Below are positions 25,616 to 61,534 of a stretch of DNA of 64,000 nucleotides, piece after piece. The notes under the pieces are model-generated. The model worked only from the letters and a program-made list of their open reading frames with translations, was not told the origin of the DNA and searched no databases. The first letter of the stretch is position 1; the number at the start of each line of letters is the position of its first letter. The translations under genes and the position numbers were made by a program. The DNA comes from Niabella yanshanensis (lineage in GTDB: Bacteria; Bacteroidota; Bacteroidia; Chitinophagales; Chitinophagaceae): contig NZ_CP139960.1 in the NCBI RefSeq assembly GCF_034424215.1, positions 1,116,001-1,180,000 of the forward strand, written 5' to 3'.

Positions 25616-25683
25616 AAGTCGGATTTGTATAATGCAAAGTCGTTTTACTGTAAAAAAAAACGCTGTGTGCTGTTTTACATTTG
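25616..25683 (+). promoter_or_regulatory. AraC-type operator and promoter of the first SusC operon
   Basis: AAGTCGGATTTGTATA begins at 25616 and a second AAGTCG begins at 25637, a direct repeat with 21-bp period. TACATTTG at 25676-25683 lies 39 bp after the start of the second half-site. The same layout recurs at 39498 and 40282. It leaves a leader of about 135 nt before the SusC ATG. Confidence 0.7.
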
Positions 25684-25824
25684 CGCATATAAACAGATTG
25701 CATATAGGAAGCGATTGCTTGGATAAATTGGTATAAAAATACTTAGCTCTGTTCTATATCTATTTTGTCCGCTTTTGACATATACTCAAACGAGATAAAC
25801 TTAATTAACTAAATTAAAATTGAA

Positions 25825-28800
25825 ATGCTTGTAGAAAAAATGAAATGTCTACTCTGTGGCAGAGGGCTGCATGTTATGCTTTCTTCTGCGGTTAAAGTTC
25901 ACAAACTGTTCCATACGCTGGTTCAGTCTTTTGACTGTAAGTTTTTGAAAAGAGATAGCATATTGGTGTTGATGTTTCTCTTTTTGTTGCCGGACAATAC
26001 CTTTTCTCAAAGTCAAACAGTATTCTCTGGTAAAGTAGTTGACAGTTTGAGCGGTTTACAGTTGGCTGGGGTTACGATAAGTGTAGACGGATCATTACAG
26101 GGAACCAGTACTAATACAGAAGGTGAGTTCTCACTTGAACTTGCGCAGAATAAGGCGACACTGATATTTTCATATGTTGGGTATATTGATAAAAAGATTA
26201 CCCTGGACAAAGGTGTTCCAGCGCTGGTTCAGTTGAATATGATTTCCAATTCTATGGAGGACGTTGCTGTCGTAGCTTATGGAAGTCAAAAGAAATCAAG
26301 TATGGTTAGCTCAATTACTTCAATAGATCCGAAAGAATTGAAAGTACCATCAAGTAATTTAACAACTGCCCTTGCCGGAAGGTTAGCAGGTGTTATAGCC
26401 TACCAGAGAACAGGAGAGCCTGGATTGGACAATGCATCTTTTTTTATAAGAGGAGTTACCACCTTCGGGTATAAAAAAGACCCTTTGATTATGGTTGATG
26501 GTGTTGAGGTTACTGCTACAGATCTGGCACGGCTTCAACCAGATGATATAGGAAGTTTTTCCATTATGAGGGATGCTACAGCTACAGCATTATATGGCGC
26601 AAGAGGTGCCAATGGAGTTATATTAGTAACGACCAAGGCTGGTGCGGAAGGCCCGGCAAGAATTACGATACGTATTGAAAATTCCCGTTCTTCAAATACG
26701 CGAGATATTGCAATGGCAGATCCGGTGACATATATGAAGCTGCATAATGAAGCTGTATTGACGAGAGACAGATTAGGCATTTTGCCATACTCCAGCAATA
26801 AAATTGATAACACCATTTCAAATGTCAATCCTTATGTTTTCCCGGCAAATGATTGGCTGGGCCAACTAATAAAAAGCAGTACCAATAACCAACGCATGAA
26901 TTTTAATGCGAACGGAGGCGGTAAAATTGCGCGATACTATATAGCGGGTACTTATAATAAGGATAATGGAATTCTGCAAGTTGATAAGCGAAATAATTTC
27001 AACAGTAATATTGCTTTGAAATCATATCAGCTACGATCCAATATTAACATAGATATGACCAAAACTACAGAAGTGATCGTACGTTTGTCTGGTAGTTTTG
27101 ATGACTATAGGGGCCCTTTGGATGGAGGTAGTGGCGTCTATTCCAAAATATTACGTTCTAATCCTGTATTGTTTCCTGCTTATTTTCCAAGCGACCTTCA
27201 ACCCACTACAAAACATATACTTTTTGGAAACGCAGATCAGGGAACCTATATCAATCCCTATGCGGATATGGTAAAAGGATATAAAGATTATTCCCGATCT
27301 ACTATGAATGCCCAGTTTGAGGTTAAGCAAGACCTGAATTTTATAACCAAAGGATTATCGGCCCGGATGCTCTTCAATACGTCTCGTTATTCATATTTTG
27401 ATGTATCCCGGTTCTATAACCCTTTTTATTACCAAAGTTATGGGTATGACAGGATAACTAATACTTACAACATTGGTTTGTTAAATGAAAATACCGCTAC
27501 AGAGTATTTAAATTATAATGAGGGAGCCCGTGATATAAATACTGCAACTTATCTGGAAGCAGCGGCTAATTATAACAAACGTATCGGACGCAAAGGTGAG
27601 TTTGCAGGTTTACTTGTTTATCAACGCAGGCAACAACTTTTTGCTAACCAGGGAACCTTGCAGAAATCTCTTCCATATCGGAATCAGGGCTTTTCGGGCA
27701 GATTCACTTATTCATTCGATACCCGTTATTTGGTGGAAGCCAATTTTGGTTATAATGGATCAGAAAGGTTCTATAAAACAGAACGATACGGATTCTTTCC
27801 TGCTGCTGGTATCGGATGGTTTATTTCAAACGAAAAATTTTGGGAAAATATCAAACCTGTTGTTAGCAAACTTAAGTTGAAAGCAACGTATGGTATTGTT
27901 GGGAACGATGCGATTGGAAGTGCTGATGATAGATTTTTCTATCTCAGTGATATTAATATGAATAACACAGGTGTTGGCGCAACATTTGGTGAAAACCTTA
28001 ATACATTTATTCCTGGTATAACAGTTAATCGTTATGACAACCGAAATATAACCTGGGAACGTTCTTACAAAACTAACTATGGAATCGAGTTAGGGCTGTT
28101 TCAGGACTTAGAACTTCAGGTGGATTACTTTACCGAAAAGAGAGATAATATTTTGATGGATCGTTCAGCAATTCCCGTCTCTATGGGTCTGACCGCTCCT
28201 GTTCGCGCAAATGTGGGAGAAGCTAAGGCGTTTGGAGTTGACGCATCAGCCAGCTACAAAAAGAATTTTACAAATGACCTTTGGCTTCAATGCCAGGGCA
28301 ATTTCACATTCGCCAGGAGTGAATTTACAAAATATGAAGAGCCCCAATATGCCGAATCGTATAAATATCATACAGGGCAATCGCTCAATCAGGTATATGG
28401 CCTTATAGCAGAACGGCTATTCATTGATCAATATGACGTTGAAAATGCACCTAAACAAAACTACGGCCTGTATCAGGCGGGAGATATTAAGTACAGAGAT
28501 GTGAATGGAGATGGACAGATCACAGATTTGGACCAGGTGCCTATAGGCTTACCGACAGTTCCTGAAATAATTTATGGATTTGGTTTTTCGACCGGCTATA
28601 AAGGAGTTGATTTTTCAATGTTTTTTCAAGGATCAGCCCGTTCGTCCTTTTGGATTGATGCAAGAGCGACAAGTCCTTTTATTACAGAAAATGTGTCGGG
28701 AACTCTTGCTCAAAATGCACTTTTAAAGGTATATGCAGACAATCATTGGTCTGAGGATAATAATAACATTTATGCGCTTTGGCCGCGTTTGAGTGACAAT

Positions 28801-29061
28801 TTGATCCAGAATAATATTCAAACAAATACCTGGTTTATGCGCAGGGGTGACTTTCTCCGGCTAAAATCCGCGGAATTAGGTTACTCCCTCAGTGATAAGA
28901 CGATGCGAAAATTACATATGAATACCTGCCGGGTTTACTTAAGTGGAACCAATCTGTTAAATATAAGCGGATTTAAGTTGTGGGACATTGAAATGGGAGG
29001 CAATGGCCTGGCATATCCCGTACAACGAGTAATCAACATAGGTTTACAAGTAGGTTTTTAA
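25825..29061 (+). CDS. SusC/RagA-type TonB-linked outer-membrane transporter
   Basis: The 1078-residue protein imports oligosaccharides with its SusD partner. A long N-terminus ends in a hydrophobic signal segment (about residues 44-62, SILVLMFLFLLPDNTFSQS). A carboxypeptidase-regulatory domain follows (VFSGKVVDSLSGLQLAGVTI), then the plug with IMVDGVEVTATDLARLQPDDIGSFSIMRDATATALYGARGANGVILVTTK (the SusC signature region). The beta-barrel ends in an aromatic C-terminus, VINIGLQVGF. The start may lie further in, because the first 40 residues are unusual. It heads a six-gene operon and is preceded by an AraC-type operator. Confidence 0.95.
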   Translation: MLVEKMKCLLCGRGLHVMLSSAVKVHKLFHTLVQSFDCKFLKRDSILVLMFLFLLPDNTFSQSQTVFSGKVVDSLSGLQLAGVTISVDGSLQGTSTNTEGEFSLELAQNKATLIFSYVGYIDKKITLDKGVPALVQLNMISNSMEDVAVVAYGSQKKSSMVSSITSIDPKELKVPSSNLTTALAGRLAGVIAYQRTGEPGLDNASFFIRGVTTFGYKKDPLIMVDGVEVTATDLARLQPDDIGSFSIMRDATATALYGARGANGVILVTTKAGAEGPARITIRIENSRSSNTRDIAMADPVTYMKLHNEAVLTRDRLGILPYSSNKIDNTISNVNPYVFPANDWLGQLIKSSTNNQRMNFNANGGGKIARYYIAGTYNKDNGILQVDKRNNFNSNIALKSYQLRSNINIDMTKTTEVIVRLSGSFDDYRGPLDGGSGVYSKILRSNPVLFPAYFPSDLQPTTKHILFGNADQGTYINPYADMVKGYKDYSRSTMNAQFEVKQDLNFITKGLSARMLFNTSRYSYFDVSRFYNPFYYQSYGYDRITNTYNIGLLNENTATEYLNYNEGARDINTATYLEAAANYNKRIGRKGEFAGLLVYQRRQQLFANQGTLQKSLPYRNQGFSGRFTYSFDTRYLVEANFGYNGSERFYKTERYGFFPAAGIGWFISNEKFWENIKPVVSKLKLKATYGIVGNDAIGSADDRFFYLSDINMNNTGVGATFGENLNTFIPGITVNRYDNRNITWERSYKTNYGIELGLFQDLELQVDYFTEKRDNILMDRSAIPVSMGLTAPVRANVGEAKAFGVDASASYKKNFTNDLWLQCQGNFTFARSEFTKYEEPQYAESYKYHTGQSLNQVYGLIAERLFIDQYDVENAPKQNYGLYQAGDIKYRDVNGDGQITDLDQVPIGLPTVPEIIYGFGFSTGYKGVDFSMFFQGSARSSFWIDARATSPFITENVSGTLAQNALLKVYADNHWSEDNNNIYALWPRLSDNLIQNNIQTNTWFMRRGDFLRLKSAELGYSLSDKTMRKLHMNTCRVYLSGTNLLNISGFKLWDIEMGGNGLAYPVQRVINIGLQVGF

Positions 29062-29081
29062 AATTAAAAGCAAATCACTAT

Positions 29082-30989
29082 ATGAAATCATATATATTCT
29101 ATACTTGGGTTATACTTTTAGCATGCATGAGTAGCTGCAAAAGAGATTATCTTGATATTGTTCCGGATAATGTTGCAACAATTGAAAACGCATTTGCGAA
29201 CAGAAATGAAGCCCAGAAATATTTGGCAACTTTATATTCAAAGCTTCCGCAGGAAAGCTACATTTATGAAAATCCGGGTTTATTGGCCGGGGACGAATTT
29301 TGGACTTATTGGCCTATAACATCTCTAAGCAGATTACCATCAACGCCTCAAAATATTGCCCGGGGAAATCAAGGTGTTAACGATCCCTTATTGAGCTATT
29401 GGAGTGGAACCCAGAATGGAAAGCCGACATTTATAGGCATTCGTGATTGTAATATTTTTCTTGAAAATGTAAGTAATTCTGATAAAATATCAGATTTAAC
29501 AGCAGATATGAGACAACGTTGGATTGGGGAAGCCCAGTTCTTAAAGGCATACTATCATTTCTATTTGCTACGGATGTATGGGCCGATACCAATTATAGAC
29601 AAAAATCTGCCGATAGATGCGACTACAGAGGAGGTTCGGGTTGAAAGACAACCTATAGATGAAGTAGTGAATTATATTGTTAAATTACTTGATACCGCTG
29701 CTTCTAACTTACCGGTGGTAATTCAGAATCGCACAACTGAATTGGGTAGAATAACTAAACTAATAGCACTTTCCACCAAAGCCAGAGTTTTGACAACTGC
29801 CGCCAGTCCGCTTTTTAACGGGAATACAGACTATAGGTCTTTTACTACAGAAGACGGCACTTCTTACTTTTCGCAAACAATGGATATTTCTAAATGGGAA
29901 AGGGCAGCAAGAGCATGTAAAGAAGCGATAGAGGCTTGTGAAGCAGCAGGTTTAAAGCTTTATTATTTTAATGACCCATTGGTCAATGTTTCCTCACGTG
30001 TTCGAAAGGAAATGGACATAAGGAATGCTATTGGTGAAAAATGGAACCAGGAACTAATTTGGGGCTTTACAAACGGAACGGGATCTTCAATTCAGGAGCA
30101 ATGTATGCCAAGGCTGGATCCGAACCGGTTGAGTAATGAAAGTAATTTTGGGCAGCTTGCTCCAAGCTTTAAAATGGCTGAGCTTTTTTACACCAAAAAT
30201 GGTGTTCCCATAAATGAAGACAAAACCTGGGATTTTGGTAACAGGCTGGAGTTGAAAACTGCCGCTCCGGCGGACTCTCACTATATTCAGGATGGTTATG
30301 TAACTGCGGGCCTCAACTTTGAACGAGAACCACGGTTTTATGCAAACATGGCTTTTGATGGTTCCCTTTGGTATATGCAGAACGGAACCTTTAAGGTACA
30401 GGCAAAGGCAGGCCAACTACAGTCGAGAAAAGCTGCTTTTGGGTATTCAATAACCGGGTATTTTACTAAAAAGTTAGTAAGCTGGAAATACGTTATTCAG
30501 GATGGTCAGGCACATTCTACCGAACAGTACCCATGGCCAGTTATAAGATTGGCTGATTTATACCTGATGTATGCAGAATGCTTAAATGAGTGGCAAGGAC
30601 CTGGTGCCGCTGATATTTTACTTTACCTGGACCGCGTAAGGCTCCGTGCTGGTTTACCGGGGGTAATTGAGTCCTGGACAAACTTTTCTACTGATCCTGC
30701 CAAGTATTTAAATAAACAAGGGCTTCGTTCCATTATACATCAGGAAACGCTGATAGAGTTTGCTTTTGAAGGCCACCGTTTTTGGGATCTGCGCCGATGG
30801 AAAGAAGCCGCAACAGTGTTAAATACACCACAGTATGGATGGGATATTGAGCAATCGGATGCGGCTTCCTATTATCGTAAAAAATTGCTATTTCAGCAAA
30901 AATTTCAGGCGCCAAGGGATTATTTCTGGCCTTTACGGCAGTATGATCTTATTGTAAATCCAAATCTAATTCAAAACCCAGGTTGGTAA
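29082..30989 (+). CDS. SusD/RagB-type nutrient-binding lipoprotein
   Basis: The 635-residue surface lipoprotein (lipobox MSSC at Cys19) caps the SusC barrel and binds the glycan. It has the helical TPR-like SusD fold: an N-terminal AFANRNEAQKYLATLYSKLP, RWIGEAQFLKAYYHFYLLRMYGPIPII in the first half, and the C-terminal VIRLADLYLMYAECLNE plus FEGHRFWDLRRWKEA. It ends FWPLRQYDLIVNPNLIQNPGW, as typical for the family. It starts 21 bp after susC, clearly the same operon. The ligand is not known from the sequence. Confidence 0.95.
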   Translation: MKSYIFYTWVILLACMSSCKRDYLDIVPDNVATIENAFANRNEAQKYLATLYSKLPQESYIYENPGLLAGDEFWTYWPITSLSRLPSTPQNIARGNQGVNDPLLSYWSGTQNGKPTFIGIRDCNIFLENVSNSDKISDLTADMRQRWIGEAQFLKAYYHFYLLRMYGPIPIIDKNLPIDATTEEVRVERQPIDEVVNYIVKLLDTAASNLPVVIQNRTTELGRITKLIALSTKARVLTTAASPLFNGNTDYRSFTTEDGTSYFSQTMDISKWERAARACKEAIEACEAAGLKLYYFNDPLVNVSSRVRKEMDIRNAIGEKWNQELIWGFTNGTGSSIQEQCMPRLDPNRLSNESNFGQLAPSFKMAELFYTKNGVPINEDKTWDFGNRLELKTAAPADSHYIQDGYVTAGLNFEREPRFYANMAFDGSLWYMQNGTFKVQAKAGQLQSRKAAFGYSITGYFTKKLVSWKYVIQDGQAHSTEQYPWPVIRLADLYLMYAECLNEWQGPGAADILLYLDRVRLRAGLPGVIESWTNFSTDPAKYLNKQGLRSIIHQETLIEFAFEGHRFWDLRRWKEAATVLNTPQYGWDIEQSDAASYYRKKLLFQQKFQAPRDYFWPLRQYDLIVNPNLIQNPGW

Positions 30990-31007
30990 AATCTAAAACT
31001 ACAGATT

Positions 31008-32174
31008 ATGCAGAAGATACAAATATTGGCACTTGCGGGTATACTTGTTTTTACAAGCTGCAAAAAAGATAAGCTCGGACCTATCGAAAATAATGAAGCT
31101 ATGCCGCAACCGGTATCTAACGTAAGTTTTGAAAGTATGCCCGGTGCGATAAAACTAACATACGATCTTCCTTCTAACTCAGATATATTATATGTTGAAG
31201 GAGATTATACTAATAAACAGGGTGACACTAAAAGCGTGAAGGCATCCTATTATACCAACAATTTAATATTAGAGGGCTTTGCAGACACTGACGAATATGT
31301 AGTAAATATCCGTACAGTCAGCCGCAGTGAAGTTCGATCTGAACCTAAGACTATTAAAGTTAGGGCATTGACACCTCCTGTCTTATCGATCTTCCAAACG
31401 CTTGCGGCCAGAGAAGACTTTGGGGGAATCAATGTTACTTTTTCCAATCCTACAGCAGCTGATGTGGCTGTTGTCATTTGCTATAAAGATTCAACCGGCG
31501 AGTTTGTGAATAATGAAACATTTTACACGAAGGTCAGGAATGCAAATTTTACCTCAAGAGGGTTTGAATCAAAACAAACAACGTTTGGAGTTTATTTGAG
31601 AGACAGGTGGAATAATTTAAGCGATACACTTCAGACGACAGTTACGCCAATTTTTGAGAAGCAATTGGATAAAGGGTTGTTCAGGCAAGTCTTATTACCA
31701 ACAGATATCGCGGATGGCTGGGGGTTACCTATTCCTAATCTTTGGGACGGTAAGGTAGCCCCAGATGGCGTAATGTGGCATTCTGCTGACGGACAAATGC
31801 CGATGCATATTACATTTGATCTGGGGGTACTTGCTAAATTGAGCCGTTTTACTTTATGGCAGCGCTCCGGTTCCTATTTATACAATCATGGTAATCCCAA
31901 AAGATATGAAATCTGGGGGTCAGATGCACCGCCTGCTGATGGCAGTTGGAATAACTGGACGCTTTTAGCTTCATGTGTATCTGTAAAACCCTCTGAAAAT
32001 TCACTTGGAGATAATACTGCGGAAGATATTGCAGCCGCTGCTTTAGGCGAACAAACCAATATTCCTTTATCGGCGCCTAAAGTTCGGTATATAAGAGTAA
32101 AAATACTGGAAACCTGGAGTGGTGGTATTGCTAGTCATATTTCTGAAATGACTTTCTGGGGCAATGCTCAATAA
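31008..32174 (+). CDS. Surface lipoprotein with DUF4959, DUF5126 and DUF5000 domains
   Basis: The 388-residue protein has a lipobox VFTSC (Cys18). An N-terminal fibronectin-like DUF4959 (PGAIKLTYDLPSNSDILYVEGDY), a middle DUF5126-like part (GINVTFSNPTAADVAVVICYKD) and a C-terminal DUF5000 galactose-binding-like sandwich follow (FDLGVLAKLSRFTLWQRSGSYLYNHGNPKRYEIWGS). Such proteins follow SusD in many Bacteroidota loci and probably act as accessory surface glycan-binding proteins. It starts 18 bp after susD. The family is recognised; the specific ligand is unknown. Confidence 0.88.
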   Translation: MQKIQILALAGILVFTSCKKDKLGPIENNEAMPQPVSNVSFESMPGAIKLTYDLPSNSDILYVEGDYTNKQGDTKSVKASYYTNNLILEGFADTDEYVVNIRTVSRSEVRSEPKTIKVRALTPPVLSIFQTLAAREDFGGINVTFSNPTAADVAVVICYKDSTGEFVNNETFYTKVRNANFTSRGFESKQTTFGVYLRDRWNNLSDTLQTTVTPIFEKQLDKGLFRQVLLPTDIADGWGLPIPNLWDGKVAPDGVMWHSADGQMPMHITFDLGVLAKLSRFTLWQRSGSYLYNHGNPKRYEIWGSDAPPADGSWNNWTLLASCVSVKPSENSLGDNTAEDIAAAALGEQTNIPLSAPKVRYIRVKILETWSGGIASHISEMTFWGNAQ

Positions 32175-32217
32175 CTAGCAAGTACAATCTCGTTAATAAC
32201 AATTAAATGACAGAAGA

Positions 32218-33429
32218 ATGCTTATAATGAATCTTAAAAACTTAGGCGTATGTGCCTGCCTGGTTTGCTTTATGCTGGTTGGAGCGAATAGCTGCACTAA
32301 ATATGACGCTTACAATCAGTATATGAACGGAAAAGATTTAGTATATACTGGAAAGGCTGATTCAGTACGTACATTTCCAGGCAGAAATCGTGTGTTAATG
32401 CAGTGGTTGATAACCGCAGATCCTAATGTTAAATCAGCACATGTGTACTGGAATGGTGGTGCAGATTCAGTGGTGGTGCCTATAAAGCGTACGGTGGGCG
32501 TTGACACAATTCGCACCATGATTTCAAATCTTCCTGAAGGCAATCTTAATTTTCAAATTATAACATTTGACGGGAATAGTAACCATTCTGTAAAAGTAAA
32601 TCATCAGGCATCAGTTTATGGTAATACCTATGAGGAGGCCCTTTTAAATCGGCTGGTTAAGCGGGCAGAAAAAGTAGAGTCTGACGTGCTCATATCCTGG
32701 TACGCACCAGATCAATCTGCCCTGGCAACAGAAGTGACATACTTTTCTGCTGAAGGACAAACAGAAAAAGTGCTGGTACCACCTGATGAAATGTTTACTA
32801 CTCTTGCTAATTATAAAAGCGGCAGTCAATTCTCAATGCGAACTTTATATAAGCCTGAGCCCTATTCCATTGATACTTTTTATTCAACCAGTCAAGTCAA
32901 AAGTGTGATAGCAGATGTTACGTCCATATATTTAAAAAATCCTGGATTTTCTTTTATTTCTTCAGAACTAAATCCTGGAGGGCGGTTTGGCAATCTTAAA
33001 GATTGGGTAACAAATGATGCGGTTAAAAATCAGGGAGGTTTTGGTGGATTCGATAATATTCCAGGATATGGCACATTGTCGCTGGAATACTGGGGTACAC
33101 CTCCGATAAGCAATGGAAAAATTTATCAAACGGTTAACCTTCCACCTGGGAAGTATACTTTTTCTGCAACGGTGCAGAATATTGATTTTGAAATTTCTTC
33201 CAGCTATTTAACTGCCGCTATAGGAAACTCGTTGCCTGACGTTGCATATTTCCAATCGGGTTTAGGCTATGCAAAGTTTACCGATAACTCTTTGAACGGA
33301 AAGGATATTGGCTTTAGCTTTACAATTAATAACGAAACCGAGGTGTCGTTAGGCGTAATTTCTACTATGAACTCAGGAACTCAAAGTCTGCGCCTAAAAG
33401 GTTTTAAGTTAGTATTTGAACCCCTTTAA
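32218..33429 (+). CDS. Surface lipoprotein with DUF4998 and DUF5013-like domains
   Basis: The 403-residue protein has a lipobox NSC near residue 26. DUF4998 lies in the N-terminal half (AHVYWNGGADSVVVPIKRT, ISNLPEGNLNFQIITFDGNSN). A C-terminal DUF5013-like carbohydrate-binding sandwich is marked by GKIYQTVNLPPGKYTFSATV and ends MNSGTQSLRLKGFKL. It is the fourth gene of the operon, 43 bp after the DUF5000 protein, a pairing usual in this phylum. It probably helps hold polysaccharide at the cell surface. An internal ATG three codons in is an equally good start. Confidence 0.82.
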   Translation: MLIMNLKNLGVCACLVCFMLVGANSCTKYDAYNQYMNGKDLVYTGKADSVRTFPGRNRVLMQWLITADPNVKSAHVYWNGGADSVVVPIKRTVGVDTIRTMISNLPEGNLNFQIITFDGNSNHSVKVNHQASVYGNTYEEALLNRLVKRAEKVESDVLISWYAPDQSALATEVTYFSAEGQTEKVLVPPDEMFTTLANYKSGSQFSMRTLYKPEPYSIDTFYSTSQVKSVIADVTSIYLKNPGFSFISSELNPGGRFGNLKDWVTNDAVKNQGGFGGFDNIPGYGTLSLEYWGTPPISNGKIYQTVNLPPGKYTFSATVQNIDFEISSSYLTAAIGNSLPDVAYFQSGLGYAKFTDNSLNGKDIGFSFTINNETEVSLGVISTMNSGTQSLRLKGFKLVFEPL

Positions 33430-33558
33430 ATCCGGTCAGCTATTAAATCCATGATATGTTCCTTGGTTAGAAAAGAAGTTATATAACGAAACAATTCATG
33501 TTGAATTGATCAAAACGTTCATGCCCTTATTAAGTTAAAATAATTCGTCAATAATAAT

Positions 33559-35763
33559 TTGCGTATGCCCAGATTCTCAAATAACACGGCCCTGGTATGT
33601 ATTGTATTTCCAATCTTATTCCAGATTTCTGCAATAAAAAGTATAAAGCATAAAGTTCCGGAAAATCCAAATTTTATTTGTGAAAAATCATTTTGGGGGA
33701 GTTCTGATTCAGGCTACCTTTTTACTTATTTTACAGGTAACAGTAAAGAGGATGAAGCCATCCGTTTTGCGATCAGTACCGATGGCTACCATTTCCAGGC
33801 ACTCAATAATAACCAGCCGGTAATAGCATCTTCAGCTATCAGCGCTACGGGAGGCGTACGTGATCCGCATATTTTGAGAGGCGCAGATGGTAAGACCTTT
33901 TATATGGTTGCTACCGATATGGTGTCTGCCAATGGCTGGGATTCTAACCGGGCGATGGTATTGCTTAAATCAACCAACCTGGTAAACTGGACCTCAGCAA
34001 TAATTAATATTCCGCAGACCTTCAAGGCTTTTGAAAAAGTAAACAGGGTCTGGGCGCCTCAAACTATTTACGATGCTCAAAAGGGTAAATACATGGTTTA
34101 TTGGTCGATGCGGGCTGGTAATGATCCTGATGTGATTTACTACGCGTATACTAATAAAGAATTTACAGCATTAGAAACAGAACCTAAACAGTTATTTTTT
34201 AGTCCGAACAACGGCGCCTGCATTGACGGAGATATTGTAGAGAAAAACGGCAGGTTCCACCTGTTCTTTAAAACTGAAGGCCAGGGCGCTGGTATAAAAG
34301 TGGCCGTTTCGGACAAACTAACGGAAGGATATACGCTGCGCGACTCCTATGTACAGCAAACCAAAGACCCGGTTGAAGGGGCTGGTGTGTTTAAGCTCAA
34401 TGATGGCAGCGGGTATATTTTAATGTATGATGTGTATACCAAAGGGCGTTACCAGTTTACTAAAACAACAGATCTTGAAAATTTTAAAGTGGTGGATGAG
34501 CAGGTATCTATGAACTTTCATCCGCGGCACGGAACAGTGTTGCCCATTACCCGGCAGGAAATGGAGCGTTTAACGGCGAAATGGTTGAGTGTTGCGGATG
34601 TGTTAGGCTCCGCGCAATCCAAACAAATTAAAAAGAACAACATCGTGCTGGACACGGTGGCTAAGAAATTATGGTTGCCTGTTTTGGATAATACCGCACT
34701 CAACCCATTCGATCCGCAGTTCAAGAATTTCCCGGGGGTAAAGATCTCGGCGTCTGGCTCAGATTTTTCCAAAAAACCGGTGGCTTATACTGTTTCGATA
34801 ACAGGCCGCAAGCCCGAGACCTGGCAGGTACAGGTATTACAGAACGGGAATCCGGTATTAGCCGGTTACTATGCTGATCCCGAGATCCTGTATTCCGAAA
34901 AAACCAAAAGGTATTATATCTATCCTACCAGTGATGGTTTTACGGGGTGGGCAGGCAATTATTTTAAAGTATTTTCATCAGCTGATCTCACTAACTGGAA
35001 AGATGAAGGCGTGATGTTGGATCTGCCCAAACAGGTGAGCTGGGCCAACCGCAATGCCTGGGCGCCCTGTATTATTGAAAAGAAGATTAATGGTCAATAT
35101 AAATACTTCTATTATTTCACAGCAGCCCAGAAAATAGGCGTTGCCGTGGCGGATGAGCCAACGGGACCATTTGTTGATTCAGGCAAGCCACTGGTGGCAG
35201 CCAAGCCCGCCGGAATAAAAGGGGGGCAGGAAATTGACCCGGATGTTTTTACAGACCCTCAAACCGGCAAAAGCTACCTCTACTGGGGGAATGGCTATAT
35301 GGCGGTAGCGGAGCTGAATGAGGATATGACCTCATTTAAAACGGACGCCCCTCAAATTATTAAGGTAGATAAAACCTACCGCGAAGGAACTTATGTTTTC
35401 TACAGGAAGGGAACTTATTACTTCATGTGGAGCGAAGATGATACCCGTAGCCCTAATTACCGGGTACGATACGGCACGGCTACCTCACCAACCGGCCCGC
35501 TGACGATACCTGCTGATAATATCGTGATACAAAAAAATGAAGCGGAGGGTATTTATGGAGCCGGTCATAACTCGGTAATACAAATTCCAGGAACGGACGA
35601 CTGGTATATCGTCTATCATCGCTTTACTTATCCTAACGGTATAAAAATGGGCAGTGCTGCCGGGTATAACCGCGAGGTATGCATCGATAAGCTGGTATTT
35701 AATGCAGATGGCTCTATACGGCAAACGATTCCTACACATAAAGGAGTAACTGCCATAAAATAA
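33559..35763 (+). CDS. Tandem glycoside hydrolase family 43 protein
   Basis: The 734-residue protein has a hydrophobic export segment (residues 9-26) and two five-bladed GH43 propellers. Each half shows the family's Asp-Asp-Glu triad. In the first these are GGVRDPHILRG, CIDGDIVEKNG and PVEGAGVFKL. In the second they are YYADPEILYSE, EIDPDVFTDP and YREGTYVFYRKG. GH43 enzymes remove arabinose, xylose or galactose residues from plant polysaccharides. Two intact active sites in one chain suggest two linkages cut in turn. It lies 129 bp after the DUF4998 gene and is probably in the same operon. Confidence 0.88.
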   Translation: MRMPRFSNNTALVCIVFPILFQISAIKSIKHKVPENPNFICEKSFWGSSDSGYLFTYFTGNSKEDEAIRFAISTDGYHFQALNNNQPVIASSAISATGGVRDPHILRGADGKTFYMVATDMVSANGWDSNRAMVLLKSTNLVNWTSAIINIPQTFKAFEKVNRVWAPQTIYDAQKGKYMVYWSMRAGNDPDVIYYAYTNKEFTALETEPKQLFFSPNNGACIDGDIVEKNGRFHLFFKTEGQGAGIKVAVSDKLTEGYTLRDSYVQQTKDPVEGAGVFKLNDGSGYILMYDVYTKGRYQFTKTTDLENFKVVDEQVSMNFHPRHGTVLPITRQEMERLTAKWLSVADVLGSAQSKQIKKNNIVLDTVAKKLWLPVLDNTALNPFDPQFKNFPGVKISASGSDFSKKPVAYTVSITGRKPETWQVQVLQNGNPVLAGYYADPEILYSEKTKRYYIYPTSDGFTGWAGNYFKVFSSADLTNWKDEGVMLDLPKQVSWANRNAWAPCIIEKKINGQYKYFYYFTAAQKIGVAVADEPTGPFVDSGKPLVAAKPAGIKGGQEIDPDVFTDPQTGKSYLYWGNGYMAVAELNEDMTSFKTDAPQIIKVDKTYREGTYVFYRKGTYYFMWSEDDTRSPNYRVRYGTATSPTGPLTIPADNIVIQKNEAEGIYGAGHNSVIQIPGTDDWYIVYHRFTYPNGIKMGSAAGYNREVCIDKLVFNADGSIRQTIPTHKGVTAIK

Positions 35764-35804
35764 AAATCAACAACTAGTTTCATTCATTCAATCAAAACCT
35801 TACA

Positions 35805-38240
35805 ATGGCCCGCTTTCTTTTTCTCTTTACGCTCCTCGTTGCAACAAACTGCTTCGCTCAACCCGGATTTGGCGATGCTCATAAGATCAACAACGGTTGG
35901 CAATTTACTTTGAATAGTACAGACTCTGTAGCTGAAAAGCCCGCTCAGTCTGCGTCCTGGCAAACTGTAGACCTGCCTCATGACTGGAGTGTACGGCAGA
36001 AGCTGGACCCCAAAAATGCCAGCAGCATGGGCTACCTGCCCGGAGGCATCGGCTGGTATAAAAAAGACGTAGTAATACCCACATCGGATAAAAAGGTATA
36101 CCTCTATTTCGAAGGAGTGTATAATCGCAGCGAGGTTTTGGTGAACGGGCAATCGGTAGGTAAACGGCCTAATGGCTATATCTCTTTTATGTATGATATT
36201 ACTCCGTTTATAAAAGCAGGCAAGACTAATGAAATATTGGTGAAAGCTGATCATCACCGCGATGCGGATTCGCGCTGGTATACGGGATCCGGTATTTACC
36301 GGGATGTGTGGCTGGTATATGCCAACCCGGTACATATAGCGCAGTGGGGCGTTTACGCTTACCCGCAGGTAGCAGATGCGTCCGCTGTGTTGAATATTGA
36401 AACGGCTATTGAAAATAAAGATGCTAAAGAACAACAACTAACAGTAGTGCAGGAACTGGTAGGACCTGATAAAAAAGTGGTTGGCAAAAGCAGTACTGCT
36501 GTTACAGTGGCGGCTAATAGTTTGGGTAAAGCTGTTGCGGCAATAAAAGTGGCAAATCCCAAACTTTGGAGTTTAAACAACCCCACATTATATACACTGC
36601 GCACCAAAGTGCTTCAAGCCGGTAAGCAAATAGATGCATCGGTAACTACTACCGGTTTCAGAAAGCTCAGCTTTGATGCCAATAAAGGGTTTGCCTTGAA
36701 CGATAAATGGATGAAAGTAAAGGGTGTTTGCCTGCATCACGATGCCGGTGTTTTGGGCGCGGCTATGTACAAAGAGGTTTGGCGCCGCCGTTTATTTAAT
36801 TTAAAGGAAGTAGGGGTAAACGCTATCAGAACCAGTCATAATCCGCAGGCAACGGTGGTTTATGAATTATGCGATGAGCTGGGTTTACTGGTAATGGATG
36901 AGGCTTTTGATGAGTGGGAGTTTCCGAAACGTAAATGGCTGGAGGGCTGGAACGCGGGTACACCGGGCTACCAGGGTAATTATGATTTTTTCCCGGAGTG
37001 GGGCGAAAAAGACCTGGCGGATATGGTGCGCAGGGACAGGAACCATATTTCCATATTTGCCTGGAGCATTGGTAATGAGGTAGACTATCCCAACGATCCT
37101 TATTCTCACCCCGTTTTGGATGGCGGTGCGCAAACGGGGTTCACACAAAAAATATTCGGCGGCTATAAGAAAGATGCACCGGACGCGATGCGCCTGGGTG
37201 TGATTGCCAAAAAGCTGGCAGCTGTGGTAAAACAGTACGACCGGTCCCGCCCGGTAACTGCAGGCCTGGCCGGTGTTGCTATGTCCAACGAAACGGAATA
37301 CCCGTCGGCATTGGATATAGCGGGTTATAACTATACGGAAAACCGTTATACCAGCGATCATAAAAAATACCCCAACCGCGTCATATTTGGTAGCGAAAAC
37401 CGGCACGACCTGAGCGCCTGGAAAGCCGTTACAGATAACGAACACATATTCGGACAATTTTTATGGACAGGCATCGACTACCTTGGTGAATCGGGTAGAT
37501 GGCCCTCGCGCGGCTTTTATTCAGGTCTGTTAGACTTTGGCGGATTTATTAAGCCAAGAGGCTTTTTCAGACAATCGCTCTGGGCCGAAAACCCGATGGC
37601 TTATATAGGTACTTACCTGGTAAAGGGTGGCAACAGTTCGCAGGATGTGCTCTCACAATCGGAGGGAAAGAAAGATGAGTATTTGTCGATGGACGCCTGG
37701 GCATCATGGAACTATAAAGAAGGACAAACTGTAAGAGTAGTATGCTATACGAATACAGCGAAAGCAAGATTGCTGCTGGATAATAAAGAGGTAGGAGCTA
37801 TAAAAGAGTACGATGGTAAAACCGGTATTATTTATTGGGACATCCCGTTCAAGCCGGGAAACCTTAAAGTAGAAGGTTTGAATGATGCGGATAAAGTAGT
37901 AGATGCTTATACCGTTGCAACTGCCGGTGAGCCATCTGATTTACAAATCATAAATGAGAGTAAGAAAGATGACCAGATAAAGCAGGTAGCTGTGCAGATG
38001 GTGGATGCCAAAGGAAACCCGGTTTACACGGAAGACGCCAATATTACCTGTACTGTATCAGGGGGTGAGCTGCTGGGACTGGAAGCAGGTGATAACAGCG
38101 ATATGGGCGACTATACCGATAACGTTCAAAGAACCTTCAGAGGCAGGTTGCTGGCTTATGTAAAAAAGAATCAAAAAGCGGGGCCGATTAAAATAACCTT
38201 TAGCACACCCGGCTTAAAAAGTGTAATGATAAACCTTTAA
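35805..38240 (+). CDS. Glycoside hydrolase family 2 protein (beta-galactosidase-like)
   Basis: The 811-residue enzyme has a signal peptide (residues 1-18, ending FAQ). The GH2 jelly roll (WQTVDLPHDWSV, GGIGWYKKDVVIP), the immunoglobulin-like domain and the TIM barrel follow. The acid/base Glu is in WSIGNEVDYP and the likely nucleophile Glu in IFGSENRHDL. GVNAIRTSHNP and LLVMDEAFDEWE are classic barrel motifs. A DUF4982-like domain (SWNYKEGQTVRVVCYTN) and a C-terminal invasin-like domain end the chain. It lies 41 bp after the GH43 gene and closes operon 1. Galactosidase activity is likely, but GH2 also covers glucuronidases and mannosidases. Confidence 0.9.
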   Translation: MARFLFLFTLLVATNCFAQPGFGDAHKINNGWQFTLNSTDSVAEKPAQSASWQTVDLPHDWSVRQKLDPKNASSMGYLPGGIGWYKKDVVIPTSDKKVYLYFEGVYNRSEVLVNGQSVGKRPNGYISFMYDITPFIKAGKTNEILVKADHHRDADSRWYTGSGIYRDVWLVYANPVHIAQWGVYAYPQVADASAVLNIETAIENKDAKEQQLTVVQELVGPDKKVVGKSSTAVTVAANSLGKAVAAIKVANPKLWSLNNPTLYTLRTKVLQAGKQIDASVTTTGFRKLSFDANKGFALNDKWMKVKGVCLHHDAGVLGAAMYKEVWRRRLFNLKEVGVNAIRTSHNPQATVVYELCDELGLLVMDEAFDEWEFPKRKWLEGWNAGTPGYQGNYDFFPEWGEKDLADMVRRDRNHISIFAWSIGNEVDYPNDPYSHPVLDGGAQTGFTQKIFGGYKKDAPDAMRLGVIAKKLAAVVKQYDRSRPVTAGLAGVAMSNETEYPSALDIAGYNYTENRYTSDHKKYPNRVIFGSENRHDLSAWKAVTDNEHIFGQFLWTGIDYLGESGRWPSRGFYSGLLDFGGFIKPRGFFRQSLWAENPMAYIGTYLVKGGNSSQDVLSQSEGKKDEYLSMDAWASWNYKEGQTVRVVCYTNTAKARLLLDNKEVGAIKEYDGKTGIIYWDIPFKPGNLKVEGLNDADKVVDAYTVATAGEPSDLQIINESKKDDQIKQVAVQMVDAKGNPVYTEDANITCTVSGGELLGLEAGDNSDMGDYTDNVQRTFRGRLLAYVKKNQKAGPIKITFSTPGLKSVMINL

Positions 38241-38587
38241 TTAGGACCTGCTGTTTAACTCGGATGATTTCTGAATGTGTTACAAAACCGGAAATCTGCC
38301 ATTCCGATAGCTATCGGAACACGAATAGTTTTTAAAAAGTAAATAAAACAACCATTTATAAGTGTCCTTTTTTTCGTTGAGGATGCAGCAATGCTTTTTT
38401 TGCGCCAAGAGTTTTGTTATTAAACTTCAAATTTGTTTGCAGAAAGATCATAATATCAACATAGAATTTTCGTAGAAAATACATTGTAATACTCTATTCG
38501 TGCCTGTCCGACTGGGTCATCCATGCGGGCATTCGTGGCAGTTAATCAGCAGACTCTAATTAATTGCGAGATTGAGACTTACTGCTC
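38241..38587. other. Intergenic region with an 18-bp palindrome
   Basis: This 347-bp gap holds no gene. TTCCGATAGCTATCGGAA at 38302-38319 is a perfect 18-bp palindrome whose 14-bp core recurs at 63357-63374. No T-run follows it, so it is not a standard terminator. The rest is AT-rich and featureless. Confidence 0.7.
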
Positions 38588-39460
38588 TTAAAAATGATTC
38601 TTAAGAGCATATTCACCAGGGGTTACCCGGGTTAATTTTTTAAAAACTCTAAAAAAATAAGGCAGGTTTTGAAACCCAATATCATCTGCGATTTGCGAAA
38701 AGGATTTTTTTGTTGTCATAATCAGATACTGAGCGCGTTCAATTCGCTTATTTTGAATATATTCCTTCGGCCGCTCTCCGGTATGTTTTGCAAAGATTCT
38801 CGAAAAATGGTCGATTTGCAAGTTCGCTCTTTGGGCTAAATGACTTACTCTAATATCTGATGAAAGGTTTATCTGTATGTATCTGATGGTATCTAATATG
38901 GTTGATGGTATTTTAGAAGTATAATCGGTTGTTAAATTGGTATGTGAAATAAACTGGGCAATTAATTGAAGCAGTATGCCCTGTGTTTCCATGAATTCGG
39001 CTTCTGATTGTTTGTTATTAAGATCCTGGTATTCCCGATAAAATGTGTTTTGTTCATATACTTTTGGATTGTCTGAACGGTATATTTTTCTATTCGGATT
39101 AATCTTTAAAAGCTGCTTAATACTACTTGCATATATTGATTGAGCTTTTATTTTAATAGGCTTCCTGTAATTTTGAAATAGTGACAAACCTGAAGGAGAT
39201 TCCTCGAAGCAATGAATAAAATATTGGCTAAGGGTAGTTACGCATTCAAGATTACACAGCGTGAAGCTGGGAATAATATAAAAATATCCATCTTCCAGTT
39301 TTAGTTTCTCTTCAAAAGTGGAAATGAAACCTTCTCCCTCGTCAATGTAATAAATACGGATATATGGGCTGATTACGTTTTTGTAGTTCCACTTTTTGTT
39401 AAGTAGAACTTTGTCCACATGAAGCAGTGAAAAATTATGGGTTAAAACTCTTCTTGCCAT
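38588..39460 (-). CDS. AraC-family regulator of the polysaccharide locus
   Basis: The 290-residue protein has an N-terminal sensor part of cupin type (VISPYIRIYYIDEGEGFISTFEEKLKLEDGYFYIIPSFT). The C-terminal AraC domain is SSDIRVSHLAQRANLQIDHFSRIFAKHTGERPKEYIQNKRIERAQYL followed by SFSQIADDIGFQNLPYFFRVFKKLTRVTPGEYAL. It stands between the two SusCD operons and is divergent from the mutarotase. A 21-bp-period direct repeat lies 38 bp before its start, and two more copies head the SusC genes. AraC-type dimers typically bind such tandem sites, so this is the likely regulator of all three units and perhaps of itself (inference). Confidence 0.92.
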   Translation of the reverse strand: MARRVLTHNFSLLHVDKVLLNKKWNYKNVISPYIRIYYIDEGEGFISTFEEKLKLEDGYFYIIPSFTLCNLECVTTLSQYFIHCFEESPSGLSLFQNYRKPIKIKAQSIYASSIKQLLKINPNRKIYRSDNPKVYEQNTFYREYQDLNNKQSEAEFMETQGILLQLIAQFISHTNLTTDYTSKIPSTILDTIRYIQINLSSDIRVSHLAQRANLQIDHFSRIFAKHTGERPKEYIQNKRIERAQYLIMTTKKSFSQIADDIGFQNLPYFFRVFKKLTRVTPGEYALKNHF

Positions 39461-39497
39461 TTTTTATTGCAATATACTATAAGGTTGTTATAATGGA

Positions 39498-39564
39498 AAG
39501 TCGGATTTGTATAGTTGAAAGTCGCTTTTATATATCTTTTCCAGGCTGATGGATTTTAAATTTG
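39498..39564 (+). promoter_or_regulatory. AraC-type operator and promoter of the mutarotase unit
   Basis: AAGTCGGATTTGTATA starts at 39498 and the second AAGTCG at 39519, 21 bp later. TAAATTTG at 39557-39564 is 38 bp after the second half-site start, facing the mutarotase gene. The site also sits just upstream of the divergent AraC gene. The leader to the mutarotase is about 180 nt. Confidence 0.7.
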
Positions 39565-39749
39565 TCATCCAAGAGCAAGCGATCTGGATATTCCCTTTTT
39601 ATTTGAAAGCTTCAAATCATAAATGTGTATTTACGAACAGCGCCTGGATATGCTTTGTACTTTTTCAAAAAGTGTTCAATGAATAACTTAACTAAGATTC
39701 GCGGATACTAAATAGGAAATCCCATTTAAACTATATTGATTTTAAAGCA

Positions 39750-40100
39750 ATGAATTTTCAAGAGTATAAAAGATTTTATTTCGCCCTGGATTTAAAAGAT
39801 GATCCGGCATTGATAACAGAATACGAACGGTGGCATAAAAAAGAAAACTCCTGGCCCGAGGTTATACAAAGCATAAAAGATGCGGGAATTGCTAATATGG
39901 AAATTTACAGGACGGGAAACAGGCTTATTATGGTAATAGAGACTACTGAAAATTATGATCATGAACGAAAGGCAAAATTGGATGCAGCAAATCCCAGGGT
40001 ACAAAAATGGGAAGAACTAATGTGGACATTCCAACAGGCATTACCATGGGCGACCAATGGGGAGAAATGGGTGGAGATGAACCGGATATTTCAACTCTGA
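39750..40100 (+). CDS. DUF718-family sugar mutarotase (L-fucose or L-rhamnose type)
   Basis: The 116-residue protein is a RhaM/DUF718 mutarotase, which interconverts alpha and beta anomers of a 6-deoxy sugar. Visible family features are the N-terminal KRFYFALDLKDDPALITEYERWHK and IKDAGIANMEIYRTGNRLIMVIET. The C-terminal WEELMWTFQQALPWATNGEKWVEMNRIFQL has the conserved Trp pair. The downstream gene cluster includes a GH29 alpha-L-fucosidase, so L-fucose is the more likely substrate. That choice is inference. No fucose kinase, isomerase or aldolase is in the window. Confidence 0.88.
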   Translation: MNFQEYKRFYFALDLKDDPALITEYERWHKKENSWPEVIQSIKDAGIANMEIYRTGNRLIMVIETTENYDHERKAKLDAANPRVQKWEELMWTFQQALPWATNGEKWVEMNRIFQL

Positions 40101-40281
40101 ATATAATATCTGGACCTACTTTGGGTTTCTCTATTAATAAATGAAACGATTTTCATGCAGCAGGAACACTCGGCGATTGCTGATAATAACTCAATGGCTA
40201 TTGATAAGTTTGGCAGTATAAGTCTAAATGATCCCCAATAGTTGAGATACTAACCAAATTCTTTGCTTGCCGATTTTAAAT

Positions 40282-40349
40282 TAGTCGGATTTGTATATAA
40301 AAAAGTCGAATTTCCGTAGCGCTCCTATGTTCTATCCGATATAAATTTG
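40282..40349 (+). promoter_or_regulatory. AraC-type operator and promoter of the second SusC operon
   Basis: TAGTCGGATTTGTATA starts at 40282 and AAGTCG at 40303, 21 bp later. TAAATTTG at 40342-40349 is 39 bp after the second half-site start. The ATG of the damaged SusC gene follows 37 bp on, so the control region is intact although the gene is not. Confidence 0.7.
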
Positions 40350-60146: not shown

Positions 60147-61534
60147 TTCAATAACTCTTTTAATTTATTAATGGTATCCTCCATTTTTTTATCTAGATCC
60201 TCGGCGGTCAAATCCGGCAAAATTTCCTCAACAAACCTTTTAAAGTAATGAATTGGAATACCTTCCTCATCAGGATGATCCGCTTCACCAATTATCCATA
60301 TTCTTGAATCATTTAGATCTAATAACTGCCCAATTGCACTGCCCTCGGTTGGTTGTCCAATAACTATTAATCTAAACGAGGGGATTGTAAATGCTTGAAA
60401 GATTAAGTTATTGATATGCTCGTCATTAAAACTGTATCCTACAGTTACCAAAATATTATTGTTTTGCATGAGCTTTCGTTGAAACTCACGAAACAAATCA
60501 GAATATGGACTTCCGAGGCTGGCATTGTATTTTAGCGGCGTTGGATGAATCATTATTGTTGACTCATCTTTCAGACGAGCATATTCAGGGTCTTGTATCT
60601 CTTTTACATTAAATAGCTTATTCTGTCTTTGCCCTTTAGCTTCCACCCAATTCACAGACCCATGTACTTTATATAGATAGAAGAAATTATCAATTACACT
60701 CCATTTTGATTGGGACAAATCCATTTTTTCAGCGAGAGCATAATTGAAAATCGCCGGATTAAAAAACTTACTAATTCCTCCTGTAAAACCATTCACATAG
60801 TGTATACCCAGTAAGTCCATTGCCTTCTCTGAGTAAAGGTCATAATTGGTTGTGAAAATGTTCAGTCTTGGCAAAGTCGAATTTCTAGATAAAAGCTTTC
60901 GGTAAAATTGTTTGTATAATTCAATTACAGGAGAGTCATTACTTGGAGTTCCGTTATTTTCTTTTGAATTATTTTCATTTAGGCATTTTTTTAAGAGAAA
61001 ATTTCGAGCTAGAAGCATTATGGAATCGATCTTTTCTGCCTGCGTCAGTTCCTCAAATGGTTTTGAAATCTCTTTTTTCTCTTCATTATCGCTAGATTTA
61101 TCATCCTCAGATTTTTTCGTCTTTCTTAAATGATAAAACGACAAACTATGTAACGTTGATAAAAACATTTCGAGATTCGTTGAAAAGGTTTTATCAGAAA
61201 CGTCTATATTTAATTCTTTATTCAGCCACTCTTTTTGTTCTTTAAAATCATCTAAGTTGTAAAACTCTTTTGCCAATGGAGCCATTACAGGAATTCCTAT
61301 TTGCTTTACCTCCAAGATGGGGGTATCAGGAGTTTCTTCGGGACCAACTTTTTTTTCTTCTCTAACCTCATAAGAAGAGCAGCCGCTACCTAATAAAAAT
61401 GAAAGATTTTTATTATCAAGAACTTTCAAAAAGGAATCCTGAATCTTCTTCTTCCCAGTTTGATCTGATTTCTGACCATTTCCCTTTTCTGATTCCAATA
61501 TATTATCGTTACCCTTATAAAAAAATATTGCCAT
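60143..61534 (-). CDS. SIR2-like effector of a SIR2-HerA defence pair
   Basis: The 463-residue protein shows the full SIR2 set: LSFLLGSGCSS (nucleotide loop, residues 44-54), LNIFTTNYDLYSEKAM, LYKVHGSVNWV with the catalytic His, and NILVTVGYSFNDEHINNLIFQAF. A charged low-complexity insertion (KSEDDKSSDNEEKKE) lies near residues 142-156. SIR2 effectors of this kind hydrolyse NAD when phage infection is sensed, and SIR2-HerA pairs form large complexes. It is first in the two-gene unit. Both genes are AT-rich compared with the core chromosome, in line with horizontal gain. Confidence 0.92.
   Translation of the reverse strand: MAIFFYKGNDNILESEKGNGQKSDQTGKKKIQDSFLKVLDNKNLSFLLGSGCSSYEVREEKKVGPEETPDTPILEVKQIGIPVMAPLAKEFYNLDDFKEQKEWLNKELNIDVSDKTFSTNLEMFLSTLHSLSFYHLRKTKKSEDDKSSDNEEKKEISKPFEELTQAEKIDSIMLLARNFLLKKCLNENNSKENNGTPSNDSPVIELYKQFYRKLLSRNSTLPRLNIFTTNYDLYSEKAMDLLGIHYVNGFTGGISKFFNPAIFNYALAEKMDLSQSKWSVIDNFFYLYKVHGSVNWVEAKGQRQNKLFNVKEIQDPEYARLKDESTIMIHPTPLKYNASLGSPYSDLFREFQRKLMQNNNILVTVGYSFNDEHINNLIFQAFTIPSFRLIVIGQPTEGSAIGQLLDLNDSRIWIIGEADHPDEEGIPIHYFKRFVEEILPDLTAEDLDKKMEDTINKLKELLK

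What the first reader, a model, noticed from the sequence alone, without database searches (positions are those of the whole stretch)
25616..40349. Three matching AraC-type operators tie two SusCD clusters and a mutarotase into one regulon
At 25616, 39498 and 40282 a half-site (A/T)AGTCGGATTTGTATA is followed by a second AAGTCG exactly 21 bp later. In each case a TAnnTTTG box follows 39, 38 and 39 bp after the second half-site start. The 21-bp period equals that of AraC araI1-I2. An AraC-family gene (38588-39460) lies between the units and next to the middle site. Seen: the repeats and spacing. Inferred: that this AraC protein binds them and activates all three rightward promoters, and may repress itself.
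Basis: partly seen in the sequence, partly recalled or inferred. Interest (0 to 1): 0.85.

Follow-up and report, generated by a model that had tools for sequence, protein, structure and literature searches.

The report
AraC switch for fucose-sugar genes
Three matching DNA control sites beside one regulator gene most likely switch on two sugar-uptake gene clusters and a sugar-handling enzyme together, and the same regulator-plus-site pair recurs next to fucose-releasing enzymes in many related bacteria.

Summary
In the 5.54-Mb genome only these three places match closely; a diverged fourth lies beside a paralogous regulator. Of 59 distinct upstream regions of AraC orthologues, 51 carry the operator, and 49 have a -7-like box 38/39 bp after the second half-site (36 of 3000 control segments). 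With the window-only motif, 7 of the 8 other site-bearing genomes have the regulator, against 35 of 393 overall. Genes behind the sites point to L-fucose (GH29/GH95 fucosidases, mutarotase, FucP-like transporter). Best reading: a one-component AraC-type activator binds a tandem direct repeat whose proximal half-site reaches the -33 position, and recruits RNA polymerase at three rightward promoters. Binding, inducer and activation are inferred; autorepression is not supported. Caveats: a second AraC/GH29 pair at 5.35 Mb could cross-talk, and the SusC of cluster 2 has lost its N-terminus. New member of a known kind. A possible twist: some relatives carry the operator directly before hybrid two-component regulator genes, which suggests a cascade.

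The parts
25616..25652 (+). Operator 1: direct repeat of two 16-bp half-sites, 21-bp period, upstream of SusC1
25676..25683 (+). -7 box TACATTTG of promoter 1, 39 bp after the start of the second half-site
25825..29061 (+). SusC1 (TonB-linked outer-membrane transporter, 1078 aa)
   Evidence: Pfam and TIGR04056
29082..30989 (+). SusD1
31008..32174 (+). DUF4959/DUF5126/DUF5000 protein, likely surface glycan-binding lipoprotein (inferred)
32218..33429 (+). DUF4998/DUF5013 protein
33559..35763 (+). GH43-domain glycosidase
35805..38240 (+). GH2 beta-galactosidase-like enzyme
38588..39460 (-). AraC-family regulator (290 aa, C-terminal HTH_18), candidate binder of the three operators
39498..39534 (+). 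Operator 2, 37 bp from the AraC start codon, upstream of the mutarotase
39557..39564 (+). -7 box TAAATTTG of promoter 2 (38 bp)
39750..40100 (+). PF05336 mutarotase; best solved match (weak, E 1.6e-4) is an L-fucose mutarotase
40282..40318 (+). Operator 3, upstream of the SusC2-SusD2-GH29 run
40342..40349 (+). -7 box TAAATTTG of promoter 3 (39 bp)
40438..43005 (+). SusC2, N-terminally truncated: matches residues 165-1019 of the G015 orthologue
43046..44677 (+). SusD2
44861..46516 (+). GH29 alpha-L-fucosidase-family enzyme

Best explanation
A one-component AraC-family activator (38588-39460) recognises a tandem direct repeat (family consensus AaGTCGGATTTGTATAAaa.AAaGTC...TTtaT..AA, 21-bp period) in front of three rightward promoters: SusC1-SusD1-GH43-GH2, the mutarotase, and SusC2-SusD2-GH29. 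With the -7 box TAnnTTTG taken as -12 to -5, the proximal half-site spans about -51 to -35, next to or over the -33 position. The bound dimer would therefore contact sigma/RNA polymerase and stand in for a -33 element (class-II-like activation). The inducer is probably L-fucose or a fucoside released by the GH29 enzyme. Shown: sites, spacing, uniqueness in the genome, conservation, co-occurrence with the regulator, gene content. Inferred: binding, activation, inducer, and any autoregulation of the divergent AraC gene.
For: Only three close sites in the 5.54-Mb genome, all here. With the motif taken from the window alone, 9 of 394 family genomes have a site at <=1 mismatch (2 control matches); the AraC protein (E<=1e-60) is in 36 of 394; 8 of the 9 are among the 36 (p 1.9e-8), or 7 of 8 against 35 of 393 without the own genome (p 1.9e-7). 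Of 36 AraC-bearing genomes 33 have a site at <=3 mismatches of a refined pattern, of 36 genomes that I picked without it 3 do (p 2e-13; 32 of 35 without the own genome); at <=2 mismatches 31 against 0, counted from the listing. 64 AraC loci, 59 distinct upstream regions: site (<=10 mismatches of 30) in 51 of 59; box at 38/39 bp, not used in scoring, in 49 of 59 (47 of the 51 with a site) against 36 of 3000 random segments. 72 distinct sites: 66 have TAnnTT at 38/39, and 54 precede a run with GH29, GH95, mutarotase, FucP-like MFS, AKR or ADH (GH29 in 42). Within the same loci a site lies within 400 bp upstream of 42 of 126 genes of that set against 20 of 890 other genes (GH29 23 of 51). The MFS passes the TIGR00885 fucP cut-off. 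The regulator profile matches the AraC DNA-binding domain structure 2k9s.
Against: No binding or expression data. A paralogous AraC (53% identity) sits beside another GH29 at 5.35 Mb with a variant site and box, so it could bind these operators too. 8 of 59 upstream regions lack a convincing site. Three genomes with the regulator have none at <=3 mismatches (G145, G242, G333). The pattern was refined on sites first seen in relatives that carry the regulator, so those two counts are not fully independent of it (one search is). Loci were fetched around the regulator or around sites, so gene-content counts carry that selection. The own genome has no fucP over the cut-off, and only two of its nine GH29 genes lie by a site that I found. 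GH29 also matches exo-alpha-L-galactosidases, so L-galactose is not excluded; the mutarotase match to L-fucose mutarotase is weak. Cluster 2 may be impaired by the truncated SusC2.
Confidence: 0.82

Rival explanations
1. The three operators are bound by, or shared with, the paralogous AraC at 5.35 Mb rather than only by the adjacent protein; the two form a cross-talking pair.
For: Paralogue 53% identical, beside a GH29 with a related operator and box at 39 bp; recognition-helix regions look similar by eye in A3.
Against: The window protein forms a clade with other Niabella proteins (support 100/96) whose genes also lie by operators. The paralogue's local operator has diverged to 8 mismatches, which could equally mean insulation.
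Confidence: 0.25
2. The repeats are operators of a hybrid two-component system (HTCS) with an AraC-type domain, whose described motifs have the same 16 + 5 bp architecture.
For: HTCS motifs in Bacteroides are direct repeats averaging 21 bp (PMC3878776, passages). Some relatives have the operator directly before HTCS genes.
Against: No HTCS among the cluster proteins scanned. The operator tracks the small AraC gene across genomes and lies beside it in 51 of 59 upstream regions. HTCS genes look like targets, since the operator is upstream of them.
Confidence: 0.07
3. The regulator is a repressor or dual regulator, and the site's nearness to the AraC start means mainly autorepression.
For: First half-site lies 0-72 bp from the AraC start in most of the 51 regions (exceptions 117 and 157 bp), under 10 bp in several.
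Against: The constant feature is the distance to the box of the outward promoter (38/39 bp), while the distance to the AraC start varies. Extra sites occur with no AraC orthologue in the fetched stretch. No exact AraC-strand box in 40 of 51 regions.
Confidence: 0.1
4. The three repeats are chance or duplicated non-coding sequence carried with the SusCD modules.
For: The two SusCD modules could have brought copies of one promoter region.
Against: In the window the sequences between second half-site and box are unalike while spacing is kept. Linker columns carry little information across 47 sites. The pattern recurs across genera and before non-SusC genes.
Confidence: 0.02

Closest known systems
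E. coli AraC acting at araI1-I2 (operator geometry recalled)
   Same: AraC-type C-terminal domain (2k9s match), direct-repeat half-sites on a 21-bp period, proximal half-site reaching the -33/-35 region
   Different: Below the AraC equivalog cut-off (63.8 against 208 bits); a loop-forming distant site was not tested; the promoter box is the Bacteroidota TAnnTTTG; probable sugar is L-fucose
HTCS regulators of Bacteroides PULs (PMC3878776, passages)
   Same: AraC-type DNA-binding domain; direct repeats about 21 bp apart, for example 16-bp sites with a 5-bp spacer
   Different: The window protein is 290 aa and only the HTH was found; no sensor, kinase or receiver domain
FucR of B. thetaiotaomicron (BT1272; PMC3878776, passages)
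   Same: Controls fucose use
   Different: FucR is GntR family with a single target operon; this is AraC family and its sites precede fucosidases and SusCD
CgrA of Zobellia galactanivorans (PMC5698469, passages)
   Same: AraC-family positive regulator of a polysaccharide locus
   Different: Carrageenan; no operator is described in the 12 of 21 passages shown
RhaR of B. thetaiotaomicron (BT3768; PMC3878776, passages)
   Same: AraC-family regulator of a deoxy-sugar pathway
   Different: Rhamnose; orthology to the window protein not tested
FucR predicted in microbial-mat bacteria (PMC5507952, passages)
   Same: Predicted regulator with sites in fucose loci; the loci compared include one Bacteroidetes, Algoriphagus
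   Different: The passages shown do not name its protein family or motif, nor say in which genomes its sites lie, so I cannot tell whether it is related

Membership tests
AraC/XylS-family regulator | C-terminal AraC-type HTH domain | tested here: met
   HTH_18 75.9 bits over cut-off 33.6, HTH_AraC 38 over 26.6; profile match to 2k9s E 5e-21
AraC/XylS-family regulator | N-terminal ligand-binding/dimerisation domain | tested here: inconclusive
   about 190 conserved N-terminal residues but no Pfam match there; structure prediction never ran
AraC/XylS-family regulator | tandem direct-repeat half-sites on one face of the DNA (criterion recalled) | tested here: met
   16-bp half-sites, 21-bp period
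class-II-type activator promoter | proximal half-site abutting or overlapping the -33/-35 position at fixed distance to the -7 box | tested here: met
   38/39 bp in 49 of 59 upstream regions; box position -12 to -5 from PMC9723704 (passages); no transcription start mapped here
class-II-type activator promoter | activator-dependent transcription | not testable with these tools
   needs RNA or reporter data
E. coli AraC equivalog (NF007860) | score over curated cut-off | tested here: not met
   63.8 bits against 208
HTCS | sensor, histidine kinase and receiver domains fused to the HTH | tested here: not met
   290 aa, only the HTH found
FucR (GntR family) | GntR-type DNA-binding domain | tested here: not met
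   only AraC-type domains matched
polysaccharide utilisation locus | SusC/SusD pair with glycosidases | tested here: met
   cluster 1 complete; cluster 2 has a truncated SusC
L-fucose regulon | conserved association of operator with fucose-related genes | tested here: met
   54 of 72 distinct sites; 42 of 126 genes of the set against 20 of 890 others with a site upstream; MFS over the TIGR00885 fucP cut-off but below NF007524; AKR and ADH are not fucose-specific names; behind the window's three operators only GH29 and mutarotase belong to this set
L-fucose regulon | response to L-fucose | not testable with these tools
   no expression data

The most novel reading that the evidence does not exclude
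This orthologous group is a general L-fucose/fucoside activator of Chitinophagaceae and some neighbours, with one operator-promoter architecture. In several genomes it stands at the top of a cascade, because its operator lies directly before genes of hybrid two-component regulators of other polysaccharide loci. A cytoplasmic sugar signal would then license glycan-specific surface sensing.
Probability: 0.45. Interest if true: 0.6.

Novelty: new member of a known kind. Interest (0 to 1): 0.5.

Why it matters
For Bacteroides the fucose regulator described is the GntR-family FucR (PMC3878776, passages). Here a different regulator class appears to control fucosidase loci in environmental Chitinophagaceae. 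A precise operator plus promoter ruler (38-39 bp) would let regulons be read from raw genomes and let poorly annotated SusCD/GH loci be assigned to fucosylated glycans. It also predicts a testable class-II-like activation geometry on a Bacteroidota TAnnTTTG promoter.

Tried and rejected
The short core AAGTCG-N15-AAGTCG alone is not enriched (29 found, 35 expected), so significance rests on the full half-sites. Two weak extra hits in the own genome (2737530 and 4826941) lack the -7 box and were dropped. The family-scan hit G286 has no box at that distance, no AraC orthologue and no GH29 in the 40 kb fetched (GH95 was not looked for there) and is treated as chance. L061 and L062 (30% and 24% identity) were left out. 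I looked for an AraC-strand TAnnTTTG to support autoregulation and found one in 11 of 51 regions at scattered distances: not supported. A palindrome seen in a few relatives (TTGTATAATACAA) is absent from operators 2 and 3 and was rejected in favour of the direct repeat. A MAFFT alignment of promoter regions was uninformative, partly because I gave one stretch (L019) in the wrong place. Rhamnose as the sugar was considered because of the Pfam name; the L-rhamnose mutarotase equivalog scores far below its cut-off (20.6 against 99.6). A notebook entry of mine says the G335 mutarotase has its own site; that was wrong: in G335 the site beside AraC faces a GH95 gene, and the mutarotase follows GH29.

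Literature: seven searches of the open-access library. In the listings shown (searches were cut at 25 of 185, 15 of 19 and 10 of 43 papers) I saw no title or abstract start on an AraC-type fucose regulator of Chitinophagaceae. No paper was read whole; passages only of PMC3878776, PMC5698469, PMC5507952, PMC11253607 and PMC9723704. Subscription papers and regulon databases were not searchable.
Full report
OBSERVATION. The three sites are exactly as described. AAGTCGGATTTGTATA begins at 25616 and 39498, and TAGTCGGATTTGTATA at 40282. A second AAGTCG begins 21 bp later in each, and TAnnTTTG begins 39, 38 and 39 bp after that. The second half-site is longer than reported: over both half-sites operator 2 fits AAGTCGNWTTTNNNTA twice without mismatch and operators 1 and 3 with one mismatch each. 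The short core is not enriched by itself, but the 16-mer is (6 against 0.83 expected, 0 of 100 shuffles). In the whole 5,543,186-bp genome only these three places match at up to 3 mismatches (reversed-pattern control 2). A longer pattern adds two 3-mismatch places (control 0) without the box.

SURROUNDINGS. Operator 1 precedes SusC1, SusD1, two DUF proteins, a GH43 and a GH2. Operator 2 lies between the divergent AraC gene and a PF05336 mutarotase. Operator 3 precedes SusC2, SusD2 and a GH29 enzyme. SusC2 is truncated: an orthologue in G015 (1019 aa) matches this gene only from residue 165, at 40438 (77% identity), and one in L115 (1034 aa) only from residue 180 at the same place. The ATG at 40386 opens only 13 codons.

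PHYLOGENETIC FOOTPRINT. A scan of 394 genomes of the family with a window-derived pattern at up to 1 mismatch found the site in 9, the own genome included (2 control matches). I fetched 40 kb around the site in the 8 others. Five hold an AraC orthologue (50-70% identity) there: right beside the site in G055, G015, G293 and G002, and about 2.3 kb from it in G335, where a weaker second site lies beside AraC. GH29 is in the run behind the scanned site in G055, G293, G335 and, at the end of a long run, G015, which carries the whole syntenic cluster; G002 has a reductase and a dehydrogenase there. G253, G365 and G286 have no orthologue in those 40 kb. A protein search found the regulator (E<=1e-60) in 36 of 394 genomes: 8 of the 9 site genomes, G253 and G365 included, but not G286 (p 1.9e-8; without the own genome 7 of 8 against 35 of 393, p 1.9e-7). 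With a refined pattern in 72 genomes, 36 with the regulator and 36 without that I chose from the same listing (same genus first, then mostly large genomes; not random), the site occurs in 33 and 3 (p 2e-13). The three in the second group have 3 mismatches each; the reversed pattern gave 11 matches over the 72 genomes. That refined pattern was drawn from sites first seen in relatives with the regulator, so this second test is not fully independent.

Named orthologues come from Niabella, Niastella, Terrimonas, Filimonas, Flavihumibacter, Chitinophaga, Mucilaginibacter, Dyadobacter, Flavobacterium and others (30 loci). G309, of the window's genus, has a contig of the same length as the Niabella record L036, so the window is probably Niabella (inference). 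In 64 loci (59 distinct upstream regions) the best site scores at most 10 mismatches of 30 in 51. A -7-like box (TAnnTT[TC][GA]) stands 38 or 39 bp after the second half-site in 49 of 59, and in 47 of the 51 with a site, against 36 of 3000 random segments of the same loci, 25 of which hold a site themselves. The box was not part of the score. Across 51 sites the 38 columns carry about 43 bits, while the linker to the box carries little.

GENES BEHIND THE SITES. One search took 72 distinct sites (<=7 mismatches) from the AraC loci, four family-scan genomes and 18 distal places that I picked from the 74. 66 have TAnnTT at 38/39. The downstream same-strand run contains GH29 in 42, the mutarotase in 22, an aldo/keto reductase in 16, a zinc dehydrogenase in 12, a FucP-like MFS in 6 and GH95 in 3; 54 of 72 have at least one of these. 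As a baseline in the same loci, a site lies within 400 bp upstream of 42 of 126 genes of this set against 20 of 890 others (GH29 23 of 51). The MFS passes the TIGR00885 fucP cut-off (379 and 390 bits against 280) but not the stricter NF007524 one (363 and 370 against 427). The mutarotase's best solved match is L-fucose mutarotase (E 1.6e-4, weak). GH29 matches alpha-L-fucosidases and exo-alpha-L-galactosidases. The common theme is L-fucose, with L-galactose not excluded. Behind the window's own operators only GH29 and the mutarotase belong to the set, and no fucP in the genome passes the cut-off.

MECHANISM. Published promoter mapping in Flavobacterium places TAnnTTTG at -12 to -5 (PMC9723704, passages). 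The second half-site then starts at about -50/-51 and its last conserved bases fall near -35, next to where a -33 element would be. This is the geometry of class-II activation, as at E. coli araI2 (recalled). I therefore propose that the dimer on the repeat stands in for the -33 contact. The divergent AraC gene starts 37 bp from the operator, so bound protein could also hinder its own transcription, but no exact AraC-strand box was found in 40 of 51 regions: untested.

COMPLICATIONS. The genome has a second AraC (53% identity) at 5.35 Mb beside another GH29, with a diverged operator (8 mismatches) and a box at 39 bp. In the tree the window protein groups with other Niabella proteins (100/96) and the paralogue falls outside. 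Cross-binding is open. Of nine GH29 genes in the genome only these two lie by a site that I found.

COMPARISON. Bacteroides HTCS motifs are direct repeats with an average period of 21 bp, and FucR there is a GntR regulator (PMC3878776, passages). CgrA of Zobellia is an AraC-family positive regulator for carrageenan (PMC5698469, passages). A FucR with predicted sites is mentioned for microbial-mat bacteria (one of the fucose loci compared there is from a Bacteroidetes), but the passages shown do not name its family or say in which genomes its sites lie (PMC5507952). The listings of seven searches showed me no AraC-type fucose regulator in this family (three listings were cut). The finding is therefore a new member of a known kind, well supported by comparison.

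BOLDEST READING. At six sites the first gene of the run is a large HTCS-like gene (L156 and L161 verified by Pfam; L108, L162, L168 and G253 by similarity; the G253 site lacks a box at 38/39); at a seventh (L041) it is only a 145-aa piece. Gene by gene, 7 of 29 HTCS-labelled genes have a site within 400 bp upstream against 6 of 761 unlabelled genes. If the sites work, the AraC protein would switch on surface-glycan sensors, a cascade from sugar to glycan sensing.

Noticed in passing
window 40386-40438: SusC2 lacks about 164 N-terminal residues relative to the G015 orthologue, right behind operator 3; a short ATG-opened frame of 13 codons precedes the join. Real deletion or assembly error.
   Followed up: partly
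G000:C1:5351905-5354209 (L093 9890-12575): Second AraC/GH29 pair in the same genome with a diverged operator (ATGTCGGATTTGTTGTATAAAAGGTC) and box at 39 bp: a natural pair for studying divergence of regulator specificity.
   Followed up: partly
L156, L161, L162, L168, L108, G253:C10:529246: The AraC operator lies directly before large HTCS-like genes in several Chitinophagaceae genomes, suggesting a regulator cascade.
   Followed up: partly
window 58104-61534 (-): Adjacent HerA-type ATPase and SIR2-domain genes, both with strong PADLOC matches: a candidate HerA-SIR2 anti-phage defence pair.
   Followed up: partly
L051-L055 upstream of AraC: In Mucilaginibacter and Dyadobacter relatives the first half-site is kept with 1-4 changes, with the box at 38 bp in 4 of 5, while the second half-site has changed and no GH29 was labelled nearby. 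In L051 a DUF1501 protein and two-component genes lie nearby.
   Followed up: partly
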